In this document: positions 8,292 through 22,786 of the stretch, piece by piece
Layout: the number at the start of each line of letters is the position of its first letter
Position numbering within the stretch: the stretch's first letter is position 1
DNA from: Chaetoceros tenuissimus
Lineage: Eukaryota > Bacillariophyta > Thalassiosirophyceae > Chaetocerotales > Chaetocerotaceae
NCBI GenBank assembly: GCA_021927905.1
Contig: BLLK01000058.1
Location: forward strand, 372,001 to 436,000
Length of the DNA stretch: 64,000 nucleotides
Reading direction: 5' to 3'
The notes under the pieces: generated by a model
What the model was told of the DNA's origin: nothing
The model's database searches: none
The model's input: only the letters and a program-made list of their open reading frames with translations
Program-made: the position numbers and the translations under genes

Positions 8292-9851
8292 ATGACACTT
8301 GCTACCGTAAGAGACCAACATACAACTCAAACAAGTAGATCTCTACTAGGAAATGAGCTTTCCCCCCGGGCCCTCGCTGATGGTATCTCTGAAAATTATT
8401 TTGCTTTCACACGGACAGGTCTAGTTCTTCCAATTGTTGCAGGAACTCTGTCTTTTGTATCATCGAGCGCGATCATAATTACTATTTTGAGATCCAAGCA
8501 AAATACACAGTATCATCGCATCATGCTTGTGATGAGTATTTTCGACGCAATTTCTTCTTTATTTATTGCGCTAACTACTCTTCCAATGCCTAGCGAAGTA
8601 AATGAAGGCGACTCATATCATTTTCAAGGCGTCGCTCTAGGATCGACTGTAACTTGTGAACTACAAGCATTCCTCATTTTCTTTGGCTTGGGGATGTGTT
8701 GTGTATGCAGCATGTTTCTAAACATTTACTTTTTTGCTTCCATCAGATATGACGTCAACGAAAACAAGTTCCGAATCTTTGCAGAGCCAATTTTTCTGCT
8801 ATTCACGTCCTTTGCTTGGGTTCTTCCGATACACTTCCTTCGAGTAGACATGCTCAACCCATCTCCTTTTGAACCATTCTGTTTCTATTCAATATACCCC
8901 TACGATTGTCAATTTCCTGGCGGCCCAGATTGCATGCGCGGTGATAAAGACGCCCGGCTCACACAGGACAAATTCTATATGATGTATTTCTTGATTTTTA
9001 TATCTTCACTAATCGCAGTGCTGGTAATGACAATGATTGGTATTTTATGGACAGTGTTTTTCGAAAAAGTTGAAACTGTTGAAGCCAGTTGTGATATCAG
9101 AGAAGGAGGTCGAACAAATAATGGAACGATTCAAGATTCTCAGAATGATCCCTCTAATCCTACAATAGAGGCATTTGAGGAACATCAAACTCAGATAGTC
9201 GGCAGAGAATCTAGTCAAAAAGTTTCAAAGTTCTCACAAAAAGAGAAGAAAGCAATGGCAATACAAGCTCTCATGTATATACTTGCATGTTTATTAGTTT
9301 GGGGTTCTTCAGTGTTATCATTCTTTCAAACATTGGGTTTTGGAGCATTTTATGTGTTCTTCATGCCATTACAGGGCTTTTTCAACTTTCTTATTTTTAG
9401 TGGTGTCAAAGTATATGTCGCTACAGCAGTCACGAAAGAATGTTCCTCAATTGCTCACGCACTGCGAACTCTCTTCTTTTCTCCACATCTACTTAGTGAT
9501 CGTTCCATCATTGGAAACATGGATCTTGTGAGAGAACATGACACGAGAGAGAATAATGAAGTAGAAATATCAATCAATCTTAGTCCTTCGTTTTCCGAAC
9601 CAAATAATAATATTGGAGATGGTGTTGAAGATGAACTGAATGTGGATGATGAAATGTTGAACACTAGCATGGTCAAAGATTCTTTTAATTGCAACATTGC
9701 CGGTGGTGAAGATTTGTTAAGTGCAGGCACACCTACTTCTGTTTTCCCTGCTTCAAGTAGAGGTGACGAAGATTTAAGCTATATGTCCAAAAGTTGGAAT
9801 AATGCTTCTCTAGGTGCGGTATCATCCTCTGCCAGTACAGTGAAGCGATAA
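8292..9851 (+). CDS. seven-transmembrane GPCR-like receptor
   Basis: Single exon, 519 aa. Seven hydrophobic segments can be seen at about residues 44-66, 77-97, 122-150, 166-190, 229-257, 322-343 and 345-372. Segments 1-5 are separated by short loops. A long, polar third intracellular loop (about 260-320) precedes segment 6, and a Ser/Asp/Asn-rich tail of roughly 140 residues follows segment 7. Cys131 at the start of helix 3 and Cys in the second extracellular loop could form the usual GPCR disulfide. The arrangement fits a G-protein-coupled receptor; the subfamily is not assigned because the DRY and NPxxY motifs are not clear. Expected in the plasma membrane. Ligand unknown. Confidence 0.75.
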   Translation: MTLATVRDQHTTQTSRSLLGNELSPRALADGISENYFAFTRTGLVLPIVAGTLSFVSSSAIIITILRSKQNTQYHRIMLVMSIFDAISSLFIALTTLPMPSEVNEGDSYHFQGVALGSTVTCELQAFLIFFGLGMCCVCSMFLNIYFFASIRYDVNENKFRIFAEPIFLLFTSFAWVLPIHFLRVDMLNPSPFEPFCFYSIYPYDCQFPGGPDCMRGDKDARLTQDKFYMMYFLIFISSLIAVLVMTMIGILWTVFFEKVETVEASCDIREGGRTNNGTIQDSQNDPSNPTIEAFEEHQTQIVGRESSQKVSKFSQKEKKAMAIQALMYILACLLVWGSSVLSFFQTLGFGAFYVFFMPLQGFFNFLIFSGVKVYVATAVTKECSSIAHALRTLFFSPHLLSDRSIIGNMDLVREHDTRENNEVEISINLSPSFSEPNNNIGDGVEDELNVDDEMLNTSMVKDSFNCNIAGGEDLLSAGTPTSVFPASSRGDEDLSYMSKSWNNASLGAVSSSASTVKR

Positions 9852-10167: not shown

Positions 10168-12402
10168 ATGTCGAAGTCTTTGTCTACCAAAAAGCCGTCC
10201 AAGGATGCAATCTCGAAAATGGTATATCATGACGACACAGAGGCAAATGAAGAATGCAGTATCTTCGTGAAAGTCAGTAACGTAAGAAGAAGTCAGTATG
10301 GGAGTTGCTTTTATACGTGTCAGTTATCTGATGAAGAGTTTGAAGTAAATGGTTTGATTTATTTACCTTCTAGAGATTCGGCAGAATCTATGTGGAGGTT
10401 TCGTCATTCTTTGTTGAAAGTGAATGGATATATTACAAGTGCAGGCAATATAATTCTCAGATCGATATCTGATAATCGGCAGACCAGAAAGAGCAATGTC
10501 TCTCGTGATGGAGATAATCATAGGCAGGGTACAAATGAATTCATACTGTGTGTTGTTTCTTTTGACATTATCGAGCAAGTAGAATTCTCAAGGACAGATT
10601 CTGTGCCTGTATATTCCAACTCAGAAAATGAAGGAAACAAGAAACTGCCTAGTTTACCAAATAGATCTAAAATTCCAGGAAGCCGGATTGCAAATACAAT
10701 GCGGGAACTATCAAATTGCTTCACGGAAGAAGAATTAGTTGGGATCTCTAATTTCAGCAATGACGCAAATAGAATCAAGGAAAAATGTGATCAAATCTCA
10801 TCATTTATTACCAGTCACAAGGCAATTATTGCTTTGCATCAAAATATGTCATTGCAAAACACTGTAGCTCAGTCTGGAGAAGAGCGAAAGGAGGAGGTCA
10901 ATAATAGCAATAACTACATCAAGGCAGTCACAGAATTTTCAGAGGCACAAATTACACGACAAATTGCATCCTTGGATTCTGCAACTTCTGTACCAAATTC
11001 AAAGAAAGCATTGGAACAATATATCAATTCCTTAAAATATGCCATTGAAAATGCACAATCAGGTAGTGCAGTGGATGTGGCACTTCTTTCTAAACTTCAT
11101 CGCACGTTGGGTGAGTCAATAATTGAAGACGCAGGGGAGCCAAGGAAGAAGCAAGTTAGAGCTGGAAAAACTATGTTTACTCCTATAGATGATGTCAAGT
11201 CGCAACTAGATGAGTATATATCTTTATTGCGAGATCTAGAAGATAAAATGTCTTTCGGAAATTCTTCAGATTCGAGTAAAGGACTGAGTCTGGTTCTATT
11301 TGCATCTGTAGCACTATTTGTACTTTGTGATATCCATCCCTTCCGAGATGGAAATGGTCGATTGGCGAGAATAATGAGTAACTTTGCTATGGTAAAGTGT
11401 GGCTTACCGTTTGTGGTAAACATCTTTGCAACTCCATTACAGCGATCCGAATATGTTCGTGCATTACAAATTACAAGAAGAAACGCAAGGATCGCTTCTG
11501 TTGGACTCGTGAGTCCCAATGTGTTTTCATTATTTAGACGGCAGATTGGAGTTATGGGACCTATAGTCAATGTGCTTTTAGATAGAATATTGAAAGCATG
11601 CATTGAGTGTCAGGAAGTAATTCAGGAAAAGAATAAATTGGAATCTGAAAACTTGGAGGCTGTCGCAGCGAGAAAGTTTAGAGAAAAAGCTGCAGCAGGA
11701 AATTGTCTGATTTGTATGGATGAAAATCCAAATATTGCAACACTTTGCTGTGGAAAGGCTGTGCATATCAATTGTATGGCAAAATGGTTGAGTAATCGTT
11801 TGGAATGTCCTCATTGCAGATACAACCTCCCTTCACTTCCAGCGCAAGATCTCTTACCTTCCACGCCAGTTGACCCTCCCCAGGTGCACATCTTTCCTCC
11901 AAACGATATGGAAACTACTACAACAGATGATACAACTACAAGTAGTATGGATGACGGTGTTTCGCAAACTCATGATTCAACTATGAGTGACACAGTGGAA
12001 GACACAACTGTGGATGATCAAGTAACTCAAGAAGTAAGTGAAAGTCAGATAGAAGTTGATGAAGATGACACAACAACAGATGTAATGAATGATACGGAAA
12101 GTTTTGAAGACACGACGACCACCGAAGATGATGATGTAAATGACAGCTCTGAGGTCCAAGATGAAACAATAGATGATACAACAACAACTGAATTTGAATC
12201 GAATGGCGTTGACTATGGCGATGGTGACGATCATGATACATCAAGCGAAACAATGCATGGAAATGAAAGTGGACAAACTCACGCGACATGCTATTATTAC
12301 GGATGTAGAAATAAGCCCGCGACAAACTGTTCAATGAATGCTTGTGGAAGTTGCTGTGTTCAATTCAACCCACATAGATGCTACAGACACAATGTATCGT
12401 AG
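10168..12402 (+). CDS. Fic-domain / RING-finger fusion protein
   Basis: Single exon, 744 aa. Residues about 30-105 form a predicted beta-rich N-terminal region of unknown type. A Fic domain follows, with a perfect active-site motif HPFRDGNGRLAR at about residue 390 (consensus HxFx[D/E]GNGRxxR). Fic enzymes usually transfer AMP or another phosphate-linked group to a hydroxyl side chain. Next comes a RING finger (C-L-I-C at about 512, then C-G-x-A-V-H-I-N-C and C-P-H-C near 548), the E2-binding module of ubiquitin ligases. A long Thr/Asp/Glu-rich low-complexity stretch (about 580-710, with DDTTT-like repeats) leads to a C-terminal Cys/His cluster (CYYYGCRNKP to CCVQFNPHRCYRH) that could bind zinc. 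A class II inhibitory [S/T]xxxE[G/N] motif was not found with confidence. Both catalytic modules look intact. Confidence 0.88.
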   Translation: MSKSLSTKKPSKDAISKMVYHDDTEANEECSIFVKVSNVRRSQYGSCFYTCQLSDEEFEVNGLIYLPSRDSAESMWRFRHSLLKVNGYITSAGNIILRSISDNRQTRKSNVSRDGDNHRQGTNEFILCVVSFDIIEQVEFSRTDSVPVYSNSENEGNKKLPSLPNRSKIPGSRIANTMRELSNCFTEEELVGISNFSNDANRIKEKCDQISSFITSHKAIIALHQNMSLQNTVAQSGEERKEEVNNSNNYIKAVTEFSEAQITRQIASLDSATSVPNSKKALEQYINSLKYAIENAQSGSAVDVALLSKLHRTLGESIIEDAGEPRKKQVRAGKTMFTPIDDVKSQLDEYISLLRDLEDKMSFGNSSDSSKGLSLVLFASVALFVLCDIHPFRDGNGRLARIMSNFAMVKCGLPFVVNIFATPLQRSEYVRALQITRRNARIASVGLVSPNVFSLFRRQIGVMGPIVNVLLDRILKACIECQEVIQEKNKLESENLEAVAARKFREKAAAGNCLICMDENPNIATLCCGKAVHINCMAKWLSNRLECPHCRYNLPSLPAQDLLPSTPVDPPQVHIFPPNDMETTTTDDTTTSSMDDGVSQTHDSTMSDTVEDTTVDDQVTQEVSESQIEVDEDDTTTDVMNDTESFEDTTTTEDDDVNDSSEVQDETIDDTTTTEFESNGVDYGDGDDHDTSSETMHGNESGQTHATCYYYGCRNKPATNCSMNACGSCCVQFNPHRCYRHNVS

Positions 12403-12603
12403 GAATAATAGTGTAGTTTGTACAATAAAAACTTGGTTATCCTTCCATATGCAATTGAGGTCGTAGAGGGAACTCACAAACTGACATAAGTGGAATTATA
12501 TCAATTAGCGCATGTAATAGACTCTTACAACACAGACTGGAGGCAGTTGACGCTCCTTTCATTCTAGTAAAAAATGACAATGATGATTGTCTTATTTATT
12601 TGC

Positions 12604-12607: not shown

Positions 12608-12614
12608 GTAATTC

Positions 12615-12688
12615 TAGCCTCGGTGGGGGTCGAACCCACGACCTTGGGTTTATTAGACCCACGCTCTAACCAACTGAGCTACGAAGCC
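12615..12688 (-). tRNA. tRNA-Ile (anticodon AAT)
   Basis: The minus strand folds into a full 74-nt cloverleaf: acceptor stem GGCTTCG/CGAGGCT (G-T pairs at positions 1-72 and 4-69), D arm GCTC/GAGC, anticodon stem TGGGT/ACCCA with loop CTAATAA, and T arm GTGGG/CCCAC around TTCGACC. The anticodon is AAT (read as inosine-AU), so it decodes Ile. There is no intron and the discriminator is A. Confidence 0.95.
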
Positions 12689-13007
12689 ATGTTGACAAAC
12701 GTGTCCATAATAAAAAATAGAAACTGTCTTGACTGAATGTCAAAAGTCAAAAGCAACGAAATCTTTTGTGTGTTTTTTCTTTGCCTCTTCTTTCATGTAT
12801 TGATTGCCTGATCACTACTACTTAGAACACAAAAGAATACATGGTCGTTTATTAGAACCTATTTGTGCTGTGGGGAACAATACTTATTTTTTGTTTCAGA
12901 AGAGATCAATAGTAAAGTAGCCTTGATCTAGGGAAAAATACAGGTGAAGAGTGGTGACTGGACTCCATTTCAAGTAAATAATTTAGGACTGCTTTTGGTT
13001 CACGAAA
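12689..13007. other. intergenic region upstream of TOR
   Basis: This 319-bp stretch lies between the tRNA 5' end and the TOR start codon and should contain the TOR promoter and 5' UTR. No recognisable element. Confidence 0.4.
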
Positions 13008-16000
13008 ATGAGTAACTATCAAAATTCCTATCATCGGAACTACACATCTCCACTAGAGGAATTGCTTAGTAAACTTCGGAGAAAATATGTTGCTGCTGCA
13101 GGGCCTCAACTTCATGGCTTTGGAAGAGACTCGACGTCTCAGATTTATGGAACAAATGATTTGTCAAATTTAGATTTTAACTCTCCACTTTTTCCGACTG
13201 ACTTTGAGGAGGGAGATGGTATGGAACAGAAGACAAATAACGAAGAAGAAAGGAATATGGAAAGGATTGAACGAAGGAGATCTTCCATGATGATGGTTAG
13301 GACATCATCTATGCATTTTTCTAGAAGAAAGTCTTCTATTGCACACCACCGATCGTCAATATCAAGTCTTGGGAGTAATATTGGCAATCTTAGTCCTCGT
13401 ACTGCAAGTAAAGTTGGACATCGCGGATCTATGAGTAACTTTTCAACAGCAGGATCACTTATTGATAGTGGTGTCATAACAGTTCATGGCTCAGTCAATT
13501 CGAGTACAATGCCTAATTCATCGTTTTTAGATCAAAAGACAGCGTTTCTGGAATGTACCACAAGATATAGAAGTGGTATTTCATCTACTTGTCATGCAGA
13601 AAACTTGTTTGCATGTGCCCCTCATCTTCGTCATATGACACAATCATCTGCTGATATGTTGAGCAGTGGATCGTCCTCTCGTAATCCTATAGCTGCATTT
13701 GTGAATGAATTAACTAGGTCAGGTGAAGCCACTTCTGAATCAAAGGATGGAACTGGTACTCTTATTTCTGATTATAGATCATCGTTGAATAGAAAGCATA
13801 CAAATACAGTAGTTGCGAGAGAATTGGCTACATTTGTTAGAGTGCTTGCGAATGAAATGTCTCATGAAGAATTTGCAGCAGTCGAAGCTGAGATTTTTTC
13901 TGATATTTTGAAATTTATGCATTCAAGTGATTGCAATAAAAGGCTTGCAGGTATTGCAGCACTGGATGCTCTCATAGGTGTAACTAGTGCTGATGAGGAA
14001 AAGAAGATCACAAAGTTTAGCAAAAACCTAAATGATAGTCTTTTCAAGGCTTCAAATGTTGACTATGAATTTCTTGCCGAGGTAACCAAAGCCCTAGGGA
14101 AGATGACTTTTGGTGGCACCAATGTGGACTATATTGAAACTGTAATCAAGCGTGTACCTGAGTGGTTAAAGAGAGATAGATCTGATCGAAGGTAAGAGCG
14201 CCATGCCATTCTGTGGATATTCTAAAAAGTTCCAAACATATTTTTTCTCACACTTTCAAAAGATTGGCAGCTGTTTTGACTGTCAAAGAATTAGCTCAGA
14301 ATGCACCTGCAACATTCTATTCCAAAACAAATCAACTCTCAATAGGAAAAGAAGGAGACACTAACGATATGGTATCACAATTATCGATTCTTAGCCAGGA
14401 AGGTGGTACCAATGCATTCATTTCTCAAATATTTCCAGTTCTTTTAGATCCACAACCAATCGTCCGTGTCTGTGCTGCAGATGCGCTTGCAGAATGCCTG
14501 GAGGTTATTGTTGATCCGAGTCGTAAGCACCATTCCACGACGAGAACATTATGTAAAGTTTATTCTTTCATCATGAAAGTTTTTAATGAGAAGAATACAT
14601 CTAAGAAACGTAATCACCACGATAATGCAAAAATTGAAGCAGCTCAACATGCTGCTTTACTAGTTATCGGTGACTTACTTGAACTACCTTTGGACTTCAT
14701 GCTACCAAGATTTGATGAAGCCTGTAAAGCAGCTTTGTCTCTAATGAATCATCCAAAGGCATTGATACGAGTGGAGGTGATTCGTTTATTGGTAAGTAAA
14801 ACTATTGGACCGTGACTCCTCATGCACAAACCTTTTTACTAATATTTGAACTTCGAAAAAAAAGCCGAGACTTGCTAGGAAATGTCCTGGACCATTCAGA
14901 AGGAGATATTTGGAAACAAGCTTAGAGTATATTATGCACTCAGCAAAATCTTTACCAACTGCAAGATCTTCAATTGACTTGAGACCAACAGCATACTTTG
15001 CACTTGGCCAACTCATCCTGGCTGTTTGTGAACATGAAAGTGGCGGGTGCTTTGTACCCGAGAAAACACTACAATTTTACAATGTTGATAATGAAAGGGA
15101 AGGTTCTTTCAACACAAACGTCACAGAAACGTCATATAGAATGAAGGCAGGAGATATCTATTCTAATATGAGTGACATATTCTCTCTTATCTGTGAAGGC
15201 ATGCAAACAGTTAAAATTGAAGCTCTTCATTGTGGTGCAGATGTCATCGAAGCTCTTGGATCCTATTCTGAATCATTTATAGATGAGACCTTAGATGCTA
15301 TGTTCCTATCTGGACTTAGTGATGATCTTATTTCATGCTTGAAGTCGATTGCGGGGTCTTTGCCTTCAAAAGCGTATGAAATTGAAAATAGATTATTACA
15401 GGAGCTGTCAACCATTCTTGCAGGAACTACACATGTGAAAGACATTTGCGATCCTCTATATGTGTCTCCTTTTGATAATGACGACGATAATGATGTTTTC
15501 ATTTCTTATAATCAGCGGCTATCCCCAAATGTGTCCATTAATTTGAGAGAAAATCCCGAAACGATACAAAAGTTATTACTCAGTTTAAGAACTCTGCGAT
15601 CATTTGGCAATATCCAGAGTAGAAAAGGATTAAGTCTACTACCGTTTGTTAGAGATGCAGTTGCACAATATCTATCCCATCCCTCTGTCGATGTTCGGAG
15701 AGAGGCTGCTTTGACATGTTGTTTTCTACTATTGCCTGTACGCGATGAAGAAACTTCGTCTATGACTTCAGAACCGAGGCTTGGAACCGTCTCGATGCTT
15801 CTGTTAGAAGAGGTACTACAGAAATTACTCAGAGTGGCAGTATCAGATTCATCGTTCATAATTAGAAATTGCATCATTCGTGCCTTTGACGAGAGGTACG
15901 ACCCTTATCTTTGCCAGACTCATCTCCTCCCCCCTCTCTTTCTACTAATGCAAGACGAGTCATTGGTAGTAAAAGCTGCAACCTTGGAATTACTTGGGAG

Positions 16001-19000
16001 ATTGGCAAGTATTAATCCGGGTCCATTACTTCCAGAGATGCGTCGAGTACTGATTCAGCTCATTTCAGAACTGAAATGTAGTGGAGACACAAACTGTGGA
16101 AAGGAAGCTGCAACACGTTTACTTATAGTATTCTTCAGAGCAAATGCTCTCCATCGACTCGTTCATCCATTCTTGCACTCTATTATAGAGGTCCTTCCAT
16201 TGAAGGGTCATGCTCCACGTGTAACTGTAGCTGCACTAGATGCTCTAGGTGAACTTGCTTCTGTTGTGAAAGAAGAGCTGAAGCCATGGATGCATCAGCT
16301 ATTACCTCATATTATGGAAATCATTCAAGATTCTAGCAGCTCGAACAAACAAAAGACAGGATTTAGATCTTTAGGATTACTCGCTGGAAATACAGGTTGT
16401 GTTATAGATTTGTATCTAGATTATCCCCGTCTTCTATCTCAGGCTTCGTCAATCCTACCTCGTGTCAGAAGAGCTCCCTGGGACTTACGCCAGGAAGTTA
16501 TTCGAACATATGGTATACTAGGTAAGAGATCAAGGTTTGTTCCATTAACTCAAAATATGCGTACCAGCCATATCTGAACATTATTGTTTAAGGTGCATTG
16601 GATCCCGATCGCTTTGTGACTAGGGATTCCTCAGTTCGAAAAACAAGTAGTGGGTATTTTGTGAATCCTGACGAATCAAACGTGGACATCGAAAAAGTAA
16701 GATATACTAGAGGGCAAAATTTAGTGTCTCTACCAGCTGCTTCAGGCATCTCTTTCCCTGTATCTCGTAGAATTGGATTTTCCACTGTTGACAATCGATT
16801 CGAAAAATCACAGATGTCAGATACTAAGGATACATCTCAAAAAAGAGAAGAAATAAGCGAAGACAAAAGTGACGATGACGACCCTGCACATCTCTACATG
16901 TATGAATTATATACTATGAATGCACAACCTGTTTCTAAGATTTCTCCTGCTCCAAGGCTCACTCCCGCACACCCAGAATTTTATGCGACTGTTGCATTAC
17001 AAGCTTTAACTTCAATTCTCAAGGATCCCACGCTGTCAGTATATCATCAAATTGCTATGCAGGCGATAATGTTCATTTTTGACTCTCTTGGACTTAGATG
17101 TGTCCAATTTTTGCGTGGGATTGTTCCTCATATTTTATACACCGCGCGTGCTTGTGGGCAGGCAACATTACGTGAAGCATTATTGAAGCAGATTGCACGC
17201 CTTAGTTCGATTGTTAAGGACAACTTGAAACCTTATGTTCCTGGTATATTTGAAGTTATCGAAGAATTCTGGGACTCTCAGCACCTGAAAACAATACTGA
17301 AACTTATTGAAATGATAGCAGTAGGAGTGCCCTCTGCATTCAAACAGTATATTTCTCTCATTATTTCAAAGTTTTTGGCAACCTTGAATGAATTCCAGTC
17401 CGGTAGTTGGACAAAAAGCCCTCAGAGCGCCAATGAAGCATTCACTCGTTTACACTTAATTCTTGAAAGTATTCGCAATTTGAGAGAAAGTATCGTGGCC
17501 TACACTCATGTAATAATACCGGCTCTGTTGAAATTGGTAGACTCACTCATAAATCCATCAATGCATTTCGGGATTAGGAATGAAAAGTGTTCTACTTTAG
17601 CTATATACACAATCAAGACTGTGTCATTACTTCTAAGAACCAACACAACAAATGCATTGAAGGGACAAGGCGAGCAAATGCCTGCTCTTGCTGCCCAACC
17701 TCTTATCCGAATGCTTGCTGCTAATACTGAAGCAAATAAAGAGGTTGGAATTTTGCTTATTGAGGCCATAAAGGTATGTGCAGTAAAGATAGGAAAATCA
17801 CGATGGTTGCCTTTGTATCATCTATCTGCTCGCAATGCAATATTTGAATGGCACAAAAAATACTATACTTTTACATCTGAAGAGGAGGAACAAAATGCTA
17901 TAGCAGCAAGAAAACACAATTGCTTAAGAGAATATGATGAACTTATTCAAGGCTTTGTGTCAATGCGCAAATTGGATGAGCTTTCCTTGACTGAGAGACT
18001 TGACAAGGATATTCAGCAAAAAGGGATTGATTCATCTAACCATCATCCACAGATAAATGATTTAGCTCCAGTTCCACAAAGTAAAGTCCAGCAACTTTCA
18101 CAATTGAATCTGTCTAGATCCTGGGACGTTTCTCAGAAACAAACCCGAGAAGATTGGGATGAATGGATGAGACATTTTGCGATTCAATTACTTCGTGAAT
18201 CCCCGTCGACTGCACTGAGGGCGACGGCCGAACTTGCTTATGCATACCAGCCGTTAGCTCGAGAACTCTTCAGTGCTGCATTCTCCTGCTGTTGGGCTTC
18301 TTTGGACGAGGAATACCGCATGGGTTTGATCCAAGCTCTGAAAACCGCATTTTTCGCAGACATATCACCAGAAATATTACAAACCCTGCTAAATCTAGCT
18401 GAATTTGCCGAGAGAGATGGAATTCCAGGTGGTGGACTGCCTATTGAAATTGACGTTCTAGCAGAACTAGCCTTGAAATGCAGAAGTTATGCCAAAGCAC
18501 TTCATTACAAAGAAAGGGAGCATGCACAAGGCGGAAAGGGGAATTGTATCGAAGATTTGATAACAATTAATAGGAAGTTAGACCTTCCAGAAGCTGCTCT
18601 GGGTGTCCTGAAAGCTGCGCAATCGGAACTTGAAAAGTCGGGTACTAAGTCTTGGGACATGCTGTATAGGAAATCAATAATGAACAAAAAACGAACTGAA
18701 TTTTCGTCGAGAATTTTCCATCGGCACCAAGGTGAAGGCTTAGCATACAGTGTAATGTCGACCGCTGATGAGATTGCAGCAAAGGGGACTGGGGCATGGT
18801 CTGGTGTCGAGATGCAAGAGAGTTGGTTGGCGAAACTAGGAAGCTGGGCCGATGCCTTAGCACTTTTTGAGAGTAGGCTCGAGGAAAACCCATCTGATAT
18901 TGAGGCTGTTCTAGGCTGTATGAATTGTCTTGATGCAAGAGGTGAATGGAAGAAGGTGCTTGAACTATCAAATAGAAGCTTCCATGCATTGACTGCAAGT

Positions 19001-22000
19001 GATACATCATATCGTGAATATAGGAAAGCGACCAAATTTTGCGCTCAGGCTTCGTGGAGGCTGGGAAAATGGGATGATCTTGAGAAATATTCATCGAGTC
19101 TACTAGAAGATAGATTTGACATCTTTCCAGGTTCTTCGAGACCAGACTTCGATGGGTCTTTTTTCAGCGCTATTTTGAATATTCATAGAAAGCGTTGGAA
19201 TCTAGCAGCCAAATTCATCGACGATGCTCGACAATCAATGGACTCTAGATTTACTGCCCTCATGAGTGAGTCTAGGAAACGGGCCTATCCAAGTATGGTT
19301 ACGGCCCAAATTCTTTCTGAAATGGAAGAAATTATTTCCTTTCGTAAACTTGAAGAAAGATCACTGGATAGTGTTGATAAACATATTGCGAATAAGGAAG
19401 ATGTTGAAGATGCTAGAGCTCGTCTTGTTGACGTTTGGAGAAAACGCTTGGAAGGATGTAGAGTTGACGCGGAGGTGCATTCTTCCATAATGGCAGTTAG
19501 ATCTCTTGTCTTGGGACCCATGGATGAGGTTGAAGCAACACTTACTCTTAGCAATTTATCTCGTCAAGCTCAAAAATACAAATTGAGTGAAAGAGTCCTT
19601 TTGGAACCTTTAGAACAACTGGGGGCTGATCTTCAATCTGTACTTTTTGGCTTTGAAATACCAAGTAATTTATCTCTTGGTCTTTTAAAAAGCAGGCATG
19701 CACCATTAGTAAATTCAACATTCCCGTTGAAAGATATTGTGTCCTCTGATGCGGGTTTTTTCTTACCTCTATATAATTTACAGCATCAATCTTTTTCAAA
19801 ACATCTCGCACAGATTGCTGGAGGAGTGACAAGGTAAGTTTTGAAATTATTTTGTCAGACAACTGTTTTTGCCATATCTCACAAGTTTATAGTCTTCGCA
19901 CTCAGCATCGCCTTTATTACGCTTATGTGAAAAATTTATGGGTAATGAATAATCGTGATGAAGCCCTGCACAGACTCGAAAAATTGGCTGATATTGTGGA
20001 TTTAGTTGCACATACATTAGATCCCAAGTCAAAAGATCTCAGAGTATCCTGCTGGTTAAAATTGGGAGAGTGGAAGATAAGCTCAAAGAACAGTCACATT
20101 TTCTCATTGCCAAAGCACACTCAATATGAGGCTCTTGTGTCTTTCAAGCGTGCGACGTATGAAAATGTGAATTGCTACAAGGCTTGGCACAAATGGGCTC
20201 TAATGAACTTTCGACTAGCGCAGCAACAAGATGAGAATCGACACAACATATTACGGAATTCCAATAATCGATCGGTAAGACTTCCTCAAAATAGTGACTG
20301 TAGTTTGACATTACAGAGTCATGTAGTAGCTGCAGTACAAGGATTTGTAAAGGCAACATGTCTAGGCACGAAAAGATGGAGTGCATCCGTTCAGCAAGAT
20401 CTACTGAACTTCTTGTCTTGTCTTTTTAAATACGGTCATGTACACGAAGTTGCGAGAGTAATAAATTTAGAGATCAAAGAAGTTCATCTTGAAGCTTGGC
20501 TTGGTGTCTTGCCTCAGTTACTTGCAAGAATTCACATTAAAGATCCTTCTGTTAGATCAATACTCCATTCTCTTCTTAGCAGACTTGGGAAGAAGCATCC
20601 GCAAGCTTTGATGTATCCCCTATCAGTTCTTGTAAAAAGTCCCGTTCAAGAAAGAAAAGATGCAGCTGAGAGCTTGATGAACTCATTGAAGAAGCACTCT
20701 TTTGCATTAGTAGAGGACGCCTTAATGGTTTCGTCTGAACTAATACGAGTTGCTATCCTATGGCTTGAACAGTGGCATGAAGGACTAGAAGATGCATCCA
20801 GACTATATTTTGGAGAGGGGAATGTTGCTGGAATGTTGGATGTGTTGCTACCTCTGCACGAAACTTTGGAACGCGGACCATCTACAAAACGTGAACAAGA
20901 TTTTCATCTAACTTTTGGTAGGAATCTTGCAGATGCATACACCTTTGTTAAAGAATATATTCGTTTAATTGAGGTAGATGGAGGAACCATTCCTACTCAT
21001 GGAGGTTTCTTGAATACAGGCGACAATCAAGTAATGATCAATTCCTCCCAAAAGGAAGAAGCTGAGAACGCAATGAATGCTGCATGGGATTTATATTACG
21101 CAGTTTTCCGACAAATCAATAAACAGCTGCCAGGCCTTACCACTCTTGAGCTGAGTCATTGTTCACCAGCACTACTTAATGCTAATAATTTGGAGCTCGG
21201 GGTGCCGGGATCATACAAAGTAAGTTTCGTTAGATCAATCCATTTTTATCAAACAATACAAGATTAACATTTCTGAACTTCATTTATAGGTCGATGGAAG
21301 TTTCGTAAAGATTGACGGTTTTCATTCCTCTGTTCAAGTTATCACCAGCAAGCAAAGGCCACGAAAGATAGTTCTAAGAGGGGGAGATGGTAAAGATTAT
21401 GTTTTCTTGCTCAAAGGACATGAAGATCTGAGACAAGACGAGAGAGTTATGCAATTATTTGGTCTCGTTAATGCTCTTCTTGCAAGAGACACAAGAACGA
21501 ATAATCACGATCTTAATATTCAAAGGTACACTATCACTCCCTTATCTCATAACGCAGGAATTGTCGGTTGGGTTCCACATTGTGACACTATTCATAGTTT
21601 GATTAGAGATTACCGCCAAGAGAAGCGGATTCGATTGAATATGGAAAATTTTGAGATGATGCGGATTTCCCAGGATTATGAGCAACTGACTGTCATGCAA
21701 AAAGTAGAAATTTTTTCTGAAGCTTTGGATCGAACAACTGGAAAGGGTAACGATCTCCAAAATGTTCTGTGGATGAGAAGCACAAATAGTGAGGAATGGC
21801 TGGACCGCCGCACAAAGTTTACAAGAAGTATTGCAGTCATGAGTATGGTGGGTTATATTTTAGGTTTAGGAGATCGCCACCCAAGCAACCTCATGCTTGA
21901 TCAGATAAGTGGTCGTGTATTACATATTGACTTTGGAGATTGTTTTGAGGTAGCTATGCACCGAGAAAAATTCCCCGAGAAGATCCCTTTTAGATTAACT

Positions 22001-22786
22001 AGAATGCTAATCAAAGCAATGGAAGTATCAGGTATTGAAGGTAGTTACCGTGATACATGCGAGCGTACAATGACAGTATTAAGAGACAACCGAGATTCCT
22101 TGGTTGCCATGCTAGAAGCATTCGTATATGATCCATTGATAAGTTGGAGATTGTTGGGACAAAGTGCAGCAGATGGACGGGATGACAAACAAGAAGACGA
22201 CTTAGTTCGCATGAATATCGCAAGCACTGCCATCGAGGAAGAGCAGAGTCAGGACGAGGATGTTTCCAATACAATTACAAACTCAGTCCTTTCAAATGTT
22301 ACCAACCCTCGATCTGATTCAAATTCTTTTCTACAAAGGAGAATGGTACCGTCTACTAATACGAATGTTACAGGTAGTCTACACGCGTCCCAAGTTCGAT
22401 CTTTTAAGATTTACTCCGAGATGCAGAGTCTTTCTTCTAATTTGAATCTCTCATCTAGAATTGCAAGCATTGCAGGAGATGAATCGAGTAGAGCTCTTAC
22501 TGCTGAGTCTCTTTCACGTTCTCGTGTTGAGAAGAGCATACGATATCGAGAGGCAATGAACTTGGCAGGGGATGGTGATGACTCTGCGACAGAGGAAGCT
22601 CTAAATGAGAAGGCTCTCAAGGTTATCAGAAGAGTTCAAGATAAATTGTCAGGTACAGATTTTAATCCTTCATCTGAAGATTTTGACTCTTTGGACGTTC
22701 AAAATCAGGTACAGAAATTAATTGTACAAGCAACAAGCACAGAAAATTTATGCCAGCTCTTTGTTGGATGGTGTGCATTTTGGTAA
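13008..22786 (+). CDS. TOR: target of rapamycin (TOR) Ser/Thr protein kinase
   Basis: Six exons: 13008-14191, 14263-14791, 14865-16521, 16593-19833, 19893-21219 and 21290-22786 (3144 aa; introns 59-73 nt). TOR is the central PIKK-family growth kinase of the TORC complexes. A Ser-rich N-terminus precedes a long HEAT-repeat solenoid, including a GALDP block typical of TOR. The FAT region follows. The FRB domain (about residues 2480-2630) contains EQWHEGLEDASRLYFGEG and AAWDLYYAVFRQINKQLP. The kinase has RPRKIVLRGGDGKDY, the catalytic GLGDRHPSNLML and the metal-binding HIDFGDCF. FATC ends in LFVGWCAFW, matching the invariant end of TOR. FRB Ser, Trp and Phe rapamycin contacts are kept, but the usual Thr three residues before the Trp is Asn. 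At about 3144 aa it is some 600 longer than human mTOR, partly from the Ser-rich N-terminus and a long linker between kinase and FATC. Confidence 0.97.

What the first reader, a model, noticed from the sequence alone, without database searches (positions are those of the whole stretch)
10168..12402. Fic AMP-transferase domain fused to a RING finger
One uninterrupted reading frame holds a perfect Fic motif (HPFRDGNGRLAR) and, about 120 residues later, a complete RING with all zinc ligands, then a Thr/Asp-rich repeat and a Cys/His cluster. Fic enzymes modify hydroxyl side chains; RING domains recruit E2 enzymes. Having both in one protein suggests a ligase that also AMPylates, or an AMPylator that directs its own or a partner's ubiquitination. 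I do not recall this architecture as a described family.
Basis: partly seen in the sequence, partly recalled or inferred. Interest (0 to 1): 0.75.

Follow-up and report, generated by a model that had tools for sequence, protein, structure and literature searches.

The report
Diatom Fic enzyme fused to RING
One diatom gene appears to join an enzyme domain that attaches a nucleotide to other proteins with a slightly unusual RING domain of the kind that recruits the ubiquitin machinery, a plausible but untested two-in-one protein-modifying enzyme.

Summary
The frame at 10168-12402 (+) is real: 744 codons, coding-like throughout. Residues 303-406 match Pfam Fic at E 3e-13, over the cut-off, with an intact HPFRDGNGRLAR loop; the modelled core is most like FICD in the PDB. 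A RING follows at 511-553 (zf-RING_2: 27.0 bits on the whole protein, just under the cut-off of 27.3; 32.1 on the fragment). One correction: it does not have "all zinc ligands". Lys530 stands at the fourth ligand position; all 64 other RING matches that I read from this genome have His there. Cys527 could stand in, roughly as in the NOT4 RING. Residues that usually touch the E2, and the linchpin Arg, are present. Residues 1-250 and the C-terminal Cys/His cluster match no family. It is the only Fic locus found in the genome, which fits Chaetoceros tenuissimus. Five literature searches listed no Fic-RING protein in what I saw, but no eukaryotic protein database was at hand, so neither conservation nor novelty is shown. 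Most likely an AMP-transferase that also recruits an E2; both activities are inferred.

The parts
10168..12402 (+). whole gene, 744 codons, no intron needed
10252..10605 (+). N-terminal region, residues about 29-146, strand-rich in low-confidence models, no family; looks OB-like to the eye only
   Evidence: no credible match; low-confidence strands
10684..10935 (+). helical region, residues 173-256, that leads into the Fic core; would hold the inhibitory helix if there is one
   Evidence: helices 173-183, 187-216, 218-231, 238-256; ten-residue blocks at pLDDT 40-74
11074..11385 (+). Fic core, Pfam PF02661 match, residues 303-406
   Evidence: on the whole genome; model
11335..11370 (+). catalytic loop HPFRDGNGRLAR, residues 390-401
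11515..11694 (+). helical linker between Fic and RING, residues about 450-509
   Evidence: helices 450-493 and 497-509; blocks at pLDDT 65-81
11698..11826 (+). RING-type zinc domain, residues 511-553, with Lys530 at the fourth ligand position
11902..12285 (+). Thr/Asp-rich, probably disordered linker, residues 579-706
12289..12390 (+). C-terminal Cys/His cluster, residues 708-741, possible zinc finger, no family
12424..12429 (+). AATAAA just after the stop, a likely polyadenylation signal

Best explanation
A single diatom protein with no obvious signal peptide or membrane anchor (judged by hydropathy only), so probably cytosolic or nuclear. Shown by sequence: a Fic core with all residues of the catalytic loop, and a RING-type zinc domain after a helical linker. 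Inferred: the Fic core transfers AMP from ATP to a hydroxyl of a bound partner, and the RING recruits an E2 loaded with ubiquitin, so that the same partner, the E2 or the protein itself is modified. The N-terminal region and the last Cys/His cluster would be the partner-binding parts. Lys530 at the fourth zinc-ligand position is probably made good by Cys527, as an extra Cys does in the NOT4 RING. I hold the fused architecture at about 0.93, AMP-transfer as the Fic activity at about 0.7, an E2-recruiting RING at about 0.6, and both in one working enzyme at about 0.4.
For: Fic E 3.1e-13, 50.8 bits over a cut-off of 24; SoFic profile E 9.5e-18; H390, F392, D394, G395, N396, G397, R398 and R401 all present. 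Of these R401 is invariant and R398 nearly so over the 66 rows of alignment A2; the invariance of the rest of the loop is partly by construction, since loci were picked by that motif. AF2 core (15 of the 16 ten-residue blocks over 281-440 at pLDDT 81-97; 361-370 is 64) with FICD as the top PDB match, E 1.9e-9. RING fragment 32.1 bits, PDB relatives RLIM and AMFR at E 1.5e-6 and 3.8e-6; I515, W540, P548 and R551 present (that these are E2-contact and linchpin positions is recalled). NOT4 has C-x-C-x4-C where this has C-C-x4-H (register set by eye). The six most hydrophobic 19-residue windows all lie at residues 369-393, in the Fic core.
Against: Lys530 replaces a zinc ligand that is His in all 64 RING matches read from this genome, so the RING may be degenerate. 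The full-length model gives the RING only pLDDT 40-44 (no RING relatives in the alignment). BLAST's own alignment with NOT4 opens a gap at H533 and so does not bear out the register that I set by eye. The inhibitory motif cannot be placed, so the resting state of the Fic core is unknown. No NCBIfam model reaches its cut-off (7 weak matches). No relative with the same order of domains was found, so no conservation supports the fusion.
Confidence: 0.4

Rival explanations
1. The Fic core is the working enzyme and the RING is a degenerate, structural or protein-binding domain without ligase activity.
For: Lys530 at ligand 4, unlike all 64 RING matches read here; whole-protein RING score a little under the cut-off.
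Against: All other ligands, an extra Cys at 527, and the usual E2-contact residues I515, W540, P548 and R551 are kept; NOT4 (C4C4) shows that the fourth position can differ (its activity is recalled).
Confidence: 0.3
2. The RING ligase is the working part and the Fic core serves as a regulated nucleotide-binding switch, or transfers a group other than AMP.
For: Some Fic proteins transfer other groups (AnkX transfers phosphocholine, start of the abstract of PMC7228754 in the listing). The (S/T)xxxE(G/N) motif is not clearly present.
Against: The catalytic loop is canonical for AMP transfer; the best PDB and profile matches are AMP-transferases, FICD and SoFic.
Confidence: 0.2
3. Two genes, or an annotation artefact: the Fic and RING parts are separate transcripts read here as one frame.
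For: No transcript data at hand; one AATAAA lies at 11632 within the linker and Met463 could in principle start a second product.
Against: One stop-free frame with coding-like codon use in all 12 blocks; a modelled helix 450-493 bridges the parts; another AATAAA begins 22 bases past the stop. An assembly error would have to keep frame.
Confidence: 0.05

Closest known systems
FICD/HYPE (human, worm Fic-1)
   Same: Fic core and catalytic loop; best PDB sequence and fold match
   Different: FICD has one transmembrane helix and TPR motifs (PMC4342408, passages); here no TPR match was found and no N-terminal membrane helix is apparent, and a RING is added. Grouping with FICD was not recovered but not rejected either (p-AU 0.10)
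SoFic-type bacterial Fic proteins
   Same: profile match E 9.5e-18 over residues 271-441
   Different: RING and Cys/His cluster are added here; the consensus of the bacterial rows (SNAIEGN) carries the (S/T)xxxE(G/N) motif, which is not clear here
RING-H2 E3 ligases such as AMFR and RLIM
   Same: domain size, spacing, E2-contact residues
   Different: Lys530 instead of the fourth ligand; fused to a Fic core
NOT4 C4C4 RING (1e4u, 1ur6)
   Same: also lacks the His at this position and has an extra Cys upstream (register by eye)
   Different: C-x-C spacing there, C-C here; pairwise match weak (29% identity, E 0.004 for one comparison) and gapped at H533

Membership tests
Fic AMP-transferases (PF02661) | family model over its curated cut-off | tested here: met
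   50.8 bits against 24
Fic AMP-transferases (PF02661) | HxFx(D/E)GNGRxxR loop | tested here: met
   residues 390-401
Fic AMP-transferases (PF02661) | Fic fold | tested here: met
   confident core, FICD top match E 1.9e-9; TM-scores by query length are only 0.20-0.24 for the FICD rows because 446 of 744 residues have pLDDT under 50
Fic AMP-transferases (PF02661) | AMP transfer | not testable with these tools
   needs an assay
Class II Fic (N-terminal inhibitory helix) | (S/T)xxxE(G/N) ahead of the core | tested here: inconclusive
   one alignment puts E256 on the invariant Glu but with K252 and F257 at the flanking motif places; another puts the motif over K252-A253; pLDDT under 50 at 239-258
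FICD/HYPE | transmembrane helix and TPR motifs before the core | tested here: not met
   no TPR match at E 1 on the whole protein or E 10 on residues 1-250; the six most hydrophobic windows lie in the Fic core, none at the N-terminus; no membrane predictor was run
FICD/HYPE | groups with FICD in a tree | tested here: inconclusive
   not recovered; held together p-AU 0.10
RING E3 ligases | RING model match | tested here: met
   zf-RING_2 32.1 bits on the fragment against 27.3, but 27.0 on the whole protein
RING E3 ligases | eight Cys/His ligands at canonical places | tested here: not met
   seven of eight; K530 at the fourth, extra C527
RING E3 ligases | E2-contact Ile, Trp, Pro and linchpin Arg (positions recalled) | tested here: met
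   I515, W540, P548, R551
RING E3 ligases | ubiquitin transfer with an E2 | not testable with these tools
   needs an assay

The most novel reading that the evidence does not exclude
A eukaryotic enzyme that writes AMP and directs ubiquitin from one polypeptide, so that one modification gates the other (AMP on the substrate or on the E2 controlling ubiquitination), found in diatoms and independent of FICD.
Probability: 0.25. Interest if true: 0.85.

Novelty: new variant of a known kind. Interest (0 to 1): 0.52.

Why it matters
The 2014 FICD structure paper says that only one Fic protein, FICD, had been identified in eukaryotic genomes to that date (PMC4342408, passages), although a 2015 survey already described four eukaryotic groups of Fic/Doc sequences (PMC4454073, passages). 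A Fic core physically tied to a RING would give a direct, testable link between AMPylation and ubiquitination and a clue to Fic function outside animals.

Tried and rejected
Full protein against viral contigs: no relatives. Fic alignment A1 against viral contigs: 5 loci, E 8e-16 to 6e-6; L097 and the identical pair L098/L099 entered the tree, L100 and L101 were dropped; I looked through the frames of L097 only, whose Fic frame is 251 aa with no RING to the eye. The tree put the diatom core beside three long-branched proteobacterial Fic proteins, L044, L064 and L071 (98/94, bootstrap not settled). I lean to long-branch attraction, which no call shows; those three also lack the Glu-Gly at the motif place, so a real kinship with Fic proteins without that motif is not excluded. 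C-terminal Cys/His cluster: one weak genome hit (E 0.06) in a cysteine-rich protein that looks like a secreted glucanase by inspection, taken as chance. N-terminal region: no credible PDB match (best E 0.61), single-sequence model mean pLDDT 47, so my OB-fold impression stays an impression; I did not run a fold search on that model. My early thought that the inhibitory Glu is replaced by Ala267 was dropped because the alignments do not agree on its place. NCBIfam: 7 weak matches, all far under their cut-offs, the first being XopAC/AvrAC with 24.8 bits against 450. A first RING count used a wrong ligand spacing and was replaced. VIA-align was not available.

Literature: searches (listings; 30 of 51 papers listed and 12 of 34), for a survey, and 13 and 34 for diatoms; passages were seen in PMC2686095, PMC4454073, PMC8097203, PMC12894286 and PMC4342408 and in three papers used for the organism. 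None describes a Fic-RING fusion in what I saw. No eukaryotic proteome could be searched.

Full report
What is there. The frame at 10168-12402 (+) runs 744 codons without a stop, which has a chance of about 8e-23 at the base composition of the window. Codon use trained on 13 other frames of the window scores frame 1 above frames 2 and 3 in 12 of 12 blocks of 62 codons, also across the Fic-RING joint and the Thr/Asp-rich tail. An AATAAA lies at 12424, just past the stop. Another AATAAA lies at 11632, within the linker between Fic and RING; I take it as chance because the frame and the modelled helix run through it.

The Fic core. Pfam Fic matches residues 303-406 with 50.8 bits against a cut-off of 24, and a SoFic profile matches 271-441 at E 9.5e-18. 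NCBIfam gives 7 weak matches, none over its cut-off. The loop HPFRDGNGRLAR is complete. In alignment A2 (the diatom protein and 65 of the 77 references printed) H390, P391, F392, D394-G397 and R401 are invariant; because the loci were picked by the motif, this says little for most of the loop, but R401 and the nearly invariant H311, G323, R398 and Y429 were not picked for. AlphaFold with this alignment gives a confident core, and Foldseek ranks FICD first at E 1.9e-9. TM-scores by query length are low, 0.20-0.24 for the FICD rows; 446 of 744 residues have pLDDT under 50.

Is the core auto-inhibited? In FICD the signature (S/T)xxxE(G/N) holds the inhibitory Glu234 (PMC4342408, passages). Here one alignment sets E256 on that column, with Lys252 and Phe257 in place of the flanking S/T and G/N; another alignment sets the motif elsewhere, and the model is not confident there. 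This stays open.

The RING. zf-RING_2 scores 27.0 bits on the whole protein, just under its cut-off of 27.3, and 32.1 on a 101-residue fragment. Against solved RINGs the order is C513, C516, C528, K530, H533, C536, C547, C550. Lys530 stands where AMFR has the fourth ligand, His. I read other RINGs of this genome with a pattern that leaves this position free: 25 distinct matches from 42 loci, some of them the same place, and a match in 39 of 40 further regions, some of them identical or near-identical copies. All 64 have His. They come (150 places scored of 307 candidates), were taken by score or picked by me, and lean towards canonical RINGs. Cys527 may take the role of the missing ligand: NOT4 has C-x-C-x4-C-x2-C there, this protein C-C-x4-H-x2-C. 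I set that register by eye; BLAST aligns C528 with the second of those Cys but opens a gap at H533. The positions recalled as E2 contacts (I515, W540, P548) and the linchpin (R551) are present.

The rest. Residues 1-250 match no Pfam family in a credible way at E 10 (best is PCSK9_C1 at E 0.083, under its cut-off); both models suggest strands at low confidence. The C-terminal cluster matches no Pfam family at E 10, and its best PDB hits have E 3.5 and 6. The six most hydrophobic windows all lie within 369-393, in the Fic core; no signal-peptide or membrane predictor was run. I therefore place the protein in the cytosol or nucleus, unlike FICD, which is ER-resident (abstract starts). This is inference.

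Where it comes from. The genome has 41,027,912 bases in 68 contigs, the longest contig among those that I fetched from is 4,456,483 bases, and the window is about 39% G+C. Chaetoceros tenuissimus NIES-3715 is published at 41.0 Mbp, 38.9% G+C and scaffolds up to 4.46 Mb, 85 in all (PMC8613185, passages). I take it to be this diatom; the different contig count is not explained. One Fic locus was found in the genome by the family, and the whole protein found no second Fic place at E 1. These searches run exon by exon, and another Fic gene broken by introns could be missed.

Relation to other Fic proteins. In a tree of 86 rows (83 of 88 prokaryote or viral-contig frames, five dropped as weak or second frames, plus the diatom core and two FICD fragments) the diatom core does not join FICD but sits on a long branch beside three long-branched proteobacterial proteins (98/94; the bootstrap had not settled). 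I lean to long-branch attraction, but those three also lack Glu-Gly at the motif place, so real kinship is not excluded. A tree with FICD and the diatom core together is not rejected (p-AU 0.10). Separate origin from FICD is thus possible, not shown.

How it most likely works. The best reading is an AMP-transferase that also recruits an E2, acting on a shared partner, the E2 or itself. The catalytic residues are shown; both activities, the partner and the order of events are inferred. The strongest rival is a Fic enzyme with a degenerate RING used as a scaffold.

Novelty. Searches for Fic with RING, ubiquitin ligase or Fido terms (two of the listings partial) showed no Fic-RING fusion in titles and abstract starts. 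In the passages that I saw, the Fido paper names fusions with HTH, TPR, LDL-receptor, EGF and other domains; of its two 'ring' matches I saw one, 'nucleotide rings' (PMC2686095). A 2015 survey holds no word beginning with 'ring' or 'ubiquitin' in its main text (PMC4454073). This is weak evidence of absence, since domain databases may already list such proteins. I file it as a new variant of a known kind.

Noticed in passing
window 13008-22786 +: A gene in several exons downstream that looks like a TOR/PIKK kinase by inspection (helical repeats, then a kinase core with GLGDRHPSNLM and an FATC-like end); labels are recalled, not tested.
   Followed up: no
window 12614-12689 -: tRNA-Ile (anticodon AAT) between the Fic-RING gene and the kinase-like gene.
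   Followed up: no
window 8292-9851 +: 519-codon frame just upstream that looks like a multi-helix membrane receptor by inspection; no Pfam match at E 1.
   Followed up: partly
G000 contigs C16, C27, C39, C14, C17: Clusters of neighbouring RING genes in this genome, for example nine zf-RING_2 matches within C16:3234046-3268872, which suggests local expansion.
   Followed up: partly
L133, L141, L154 and similar: Many of the RINGs read share a Cys-Cys-His run (PECCHRFC and the like), an extra Cys right after the third ligand.
   Followed up: no
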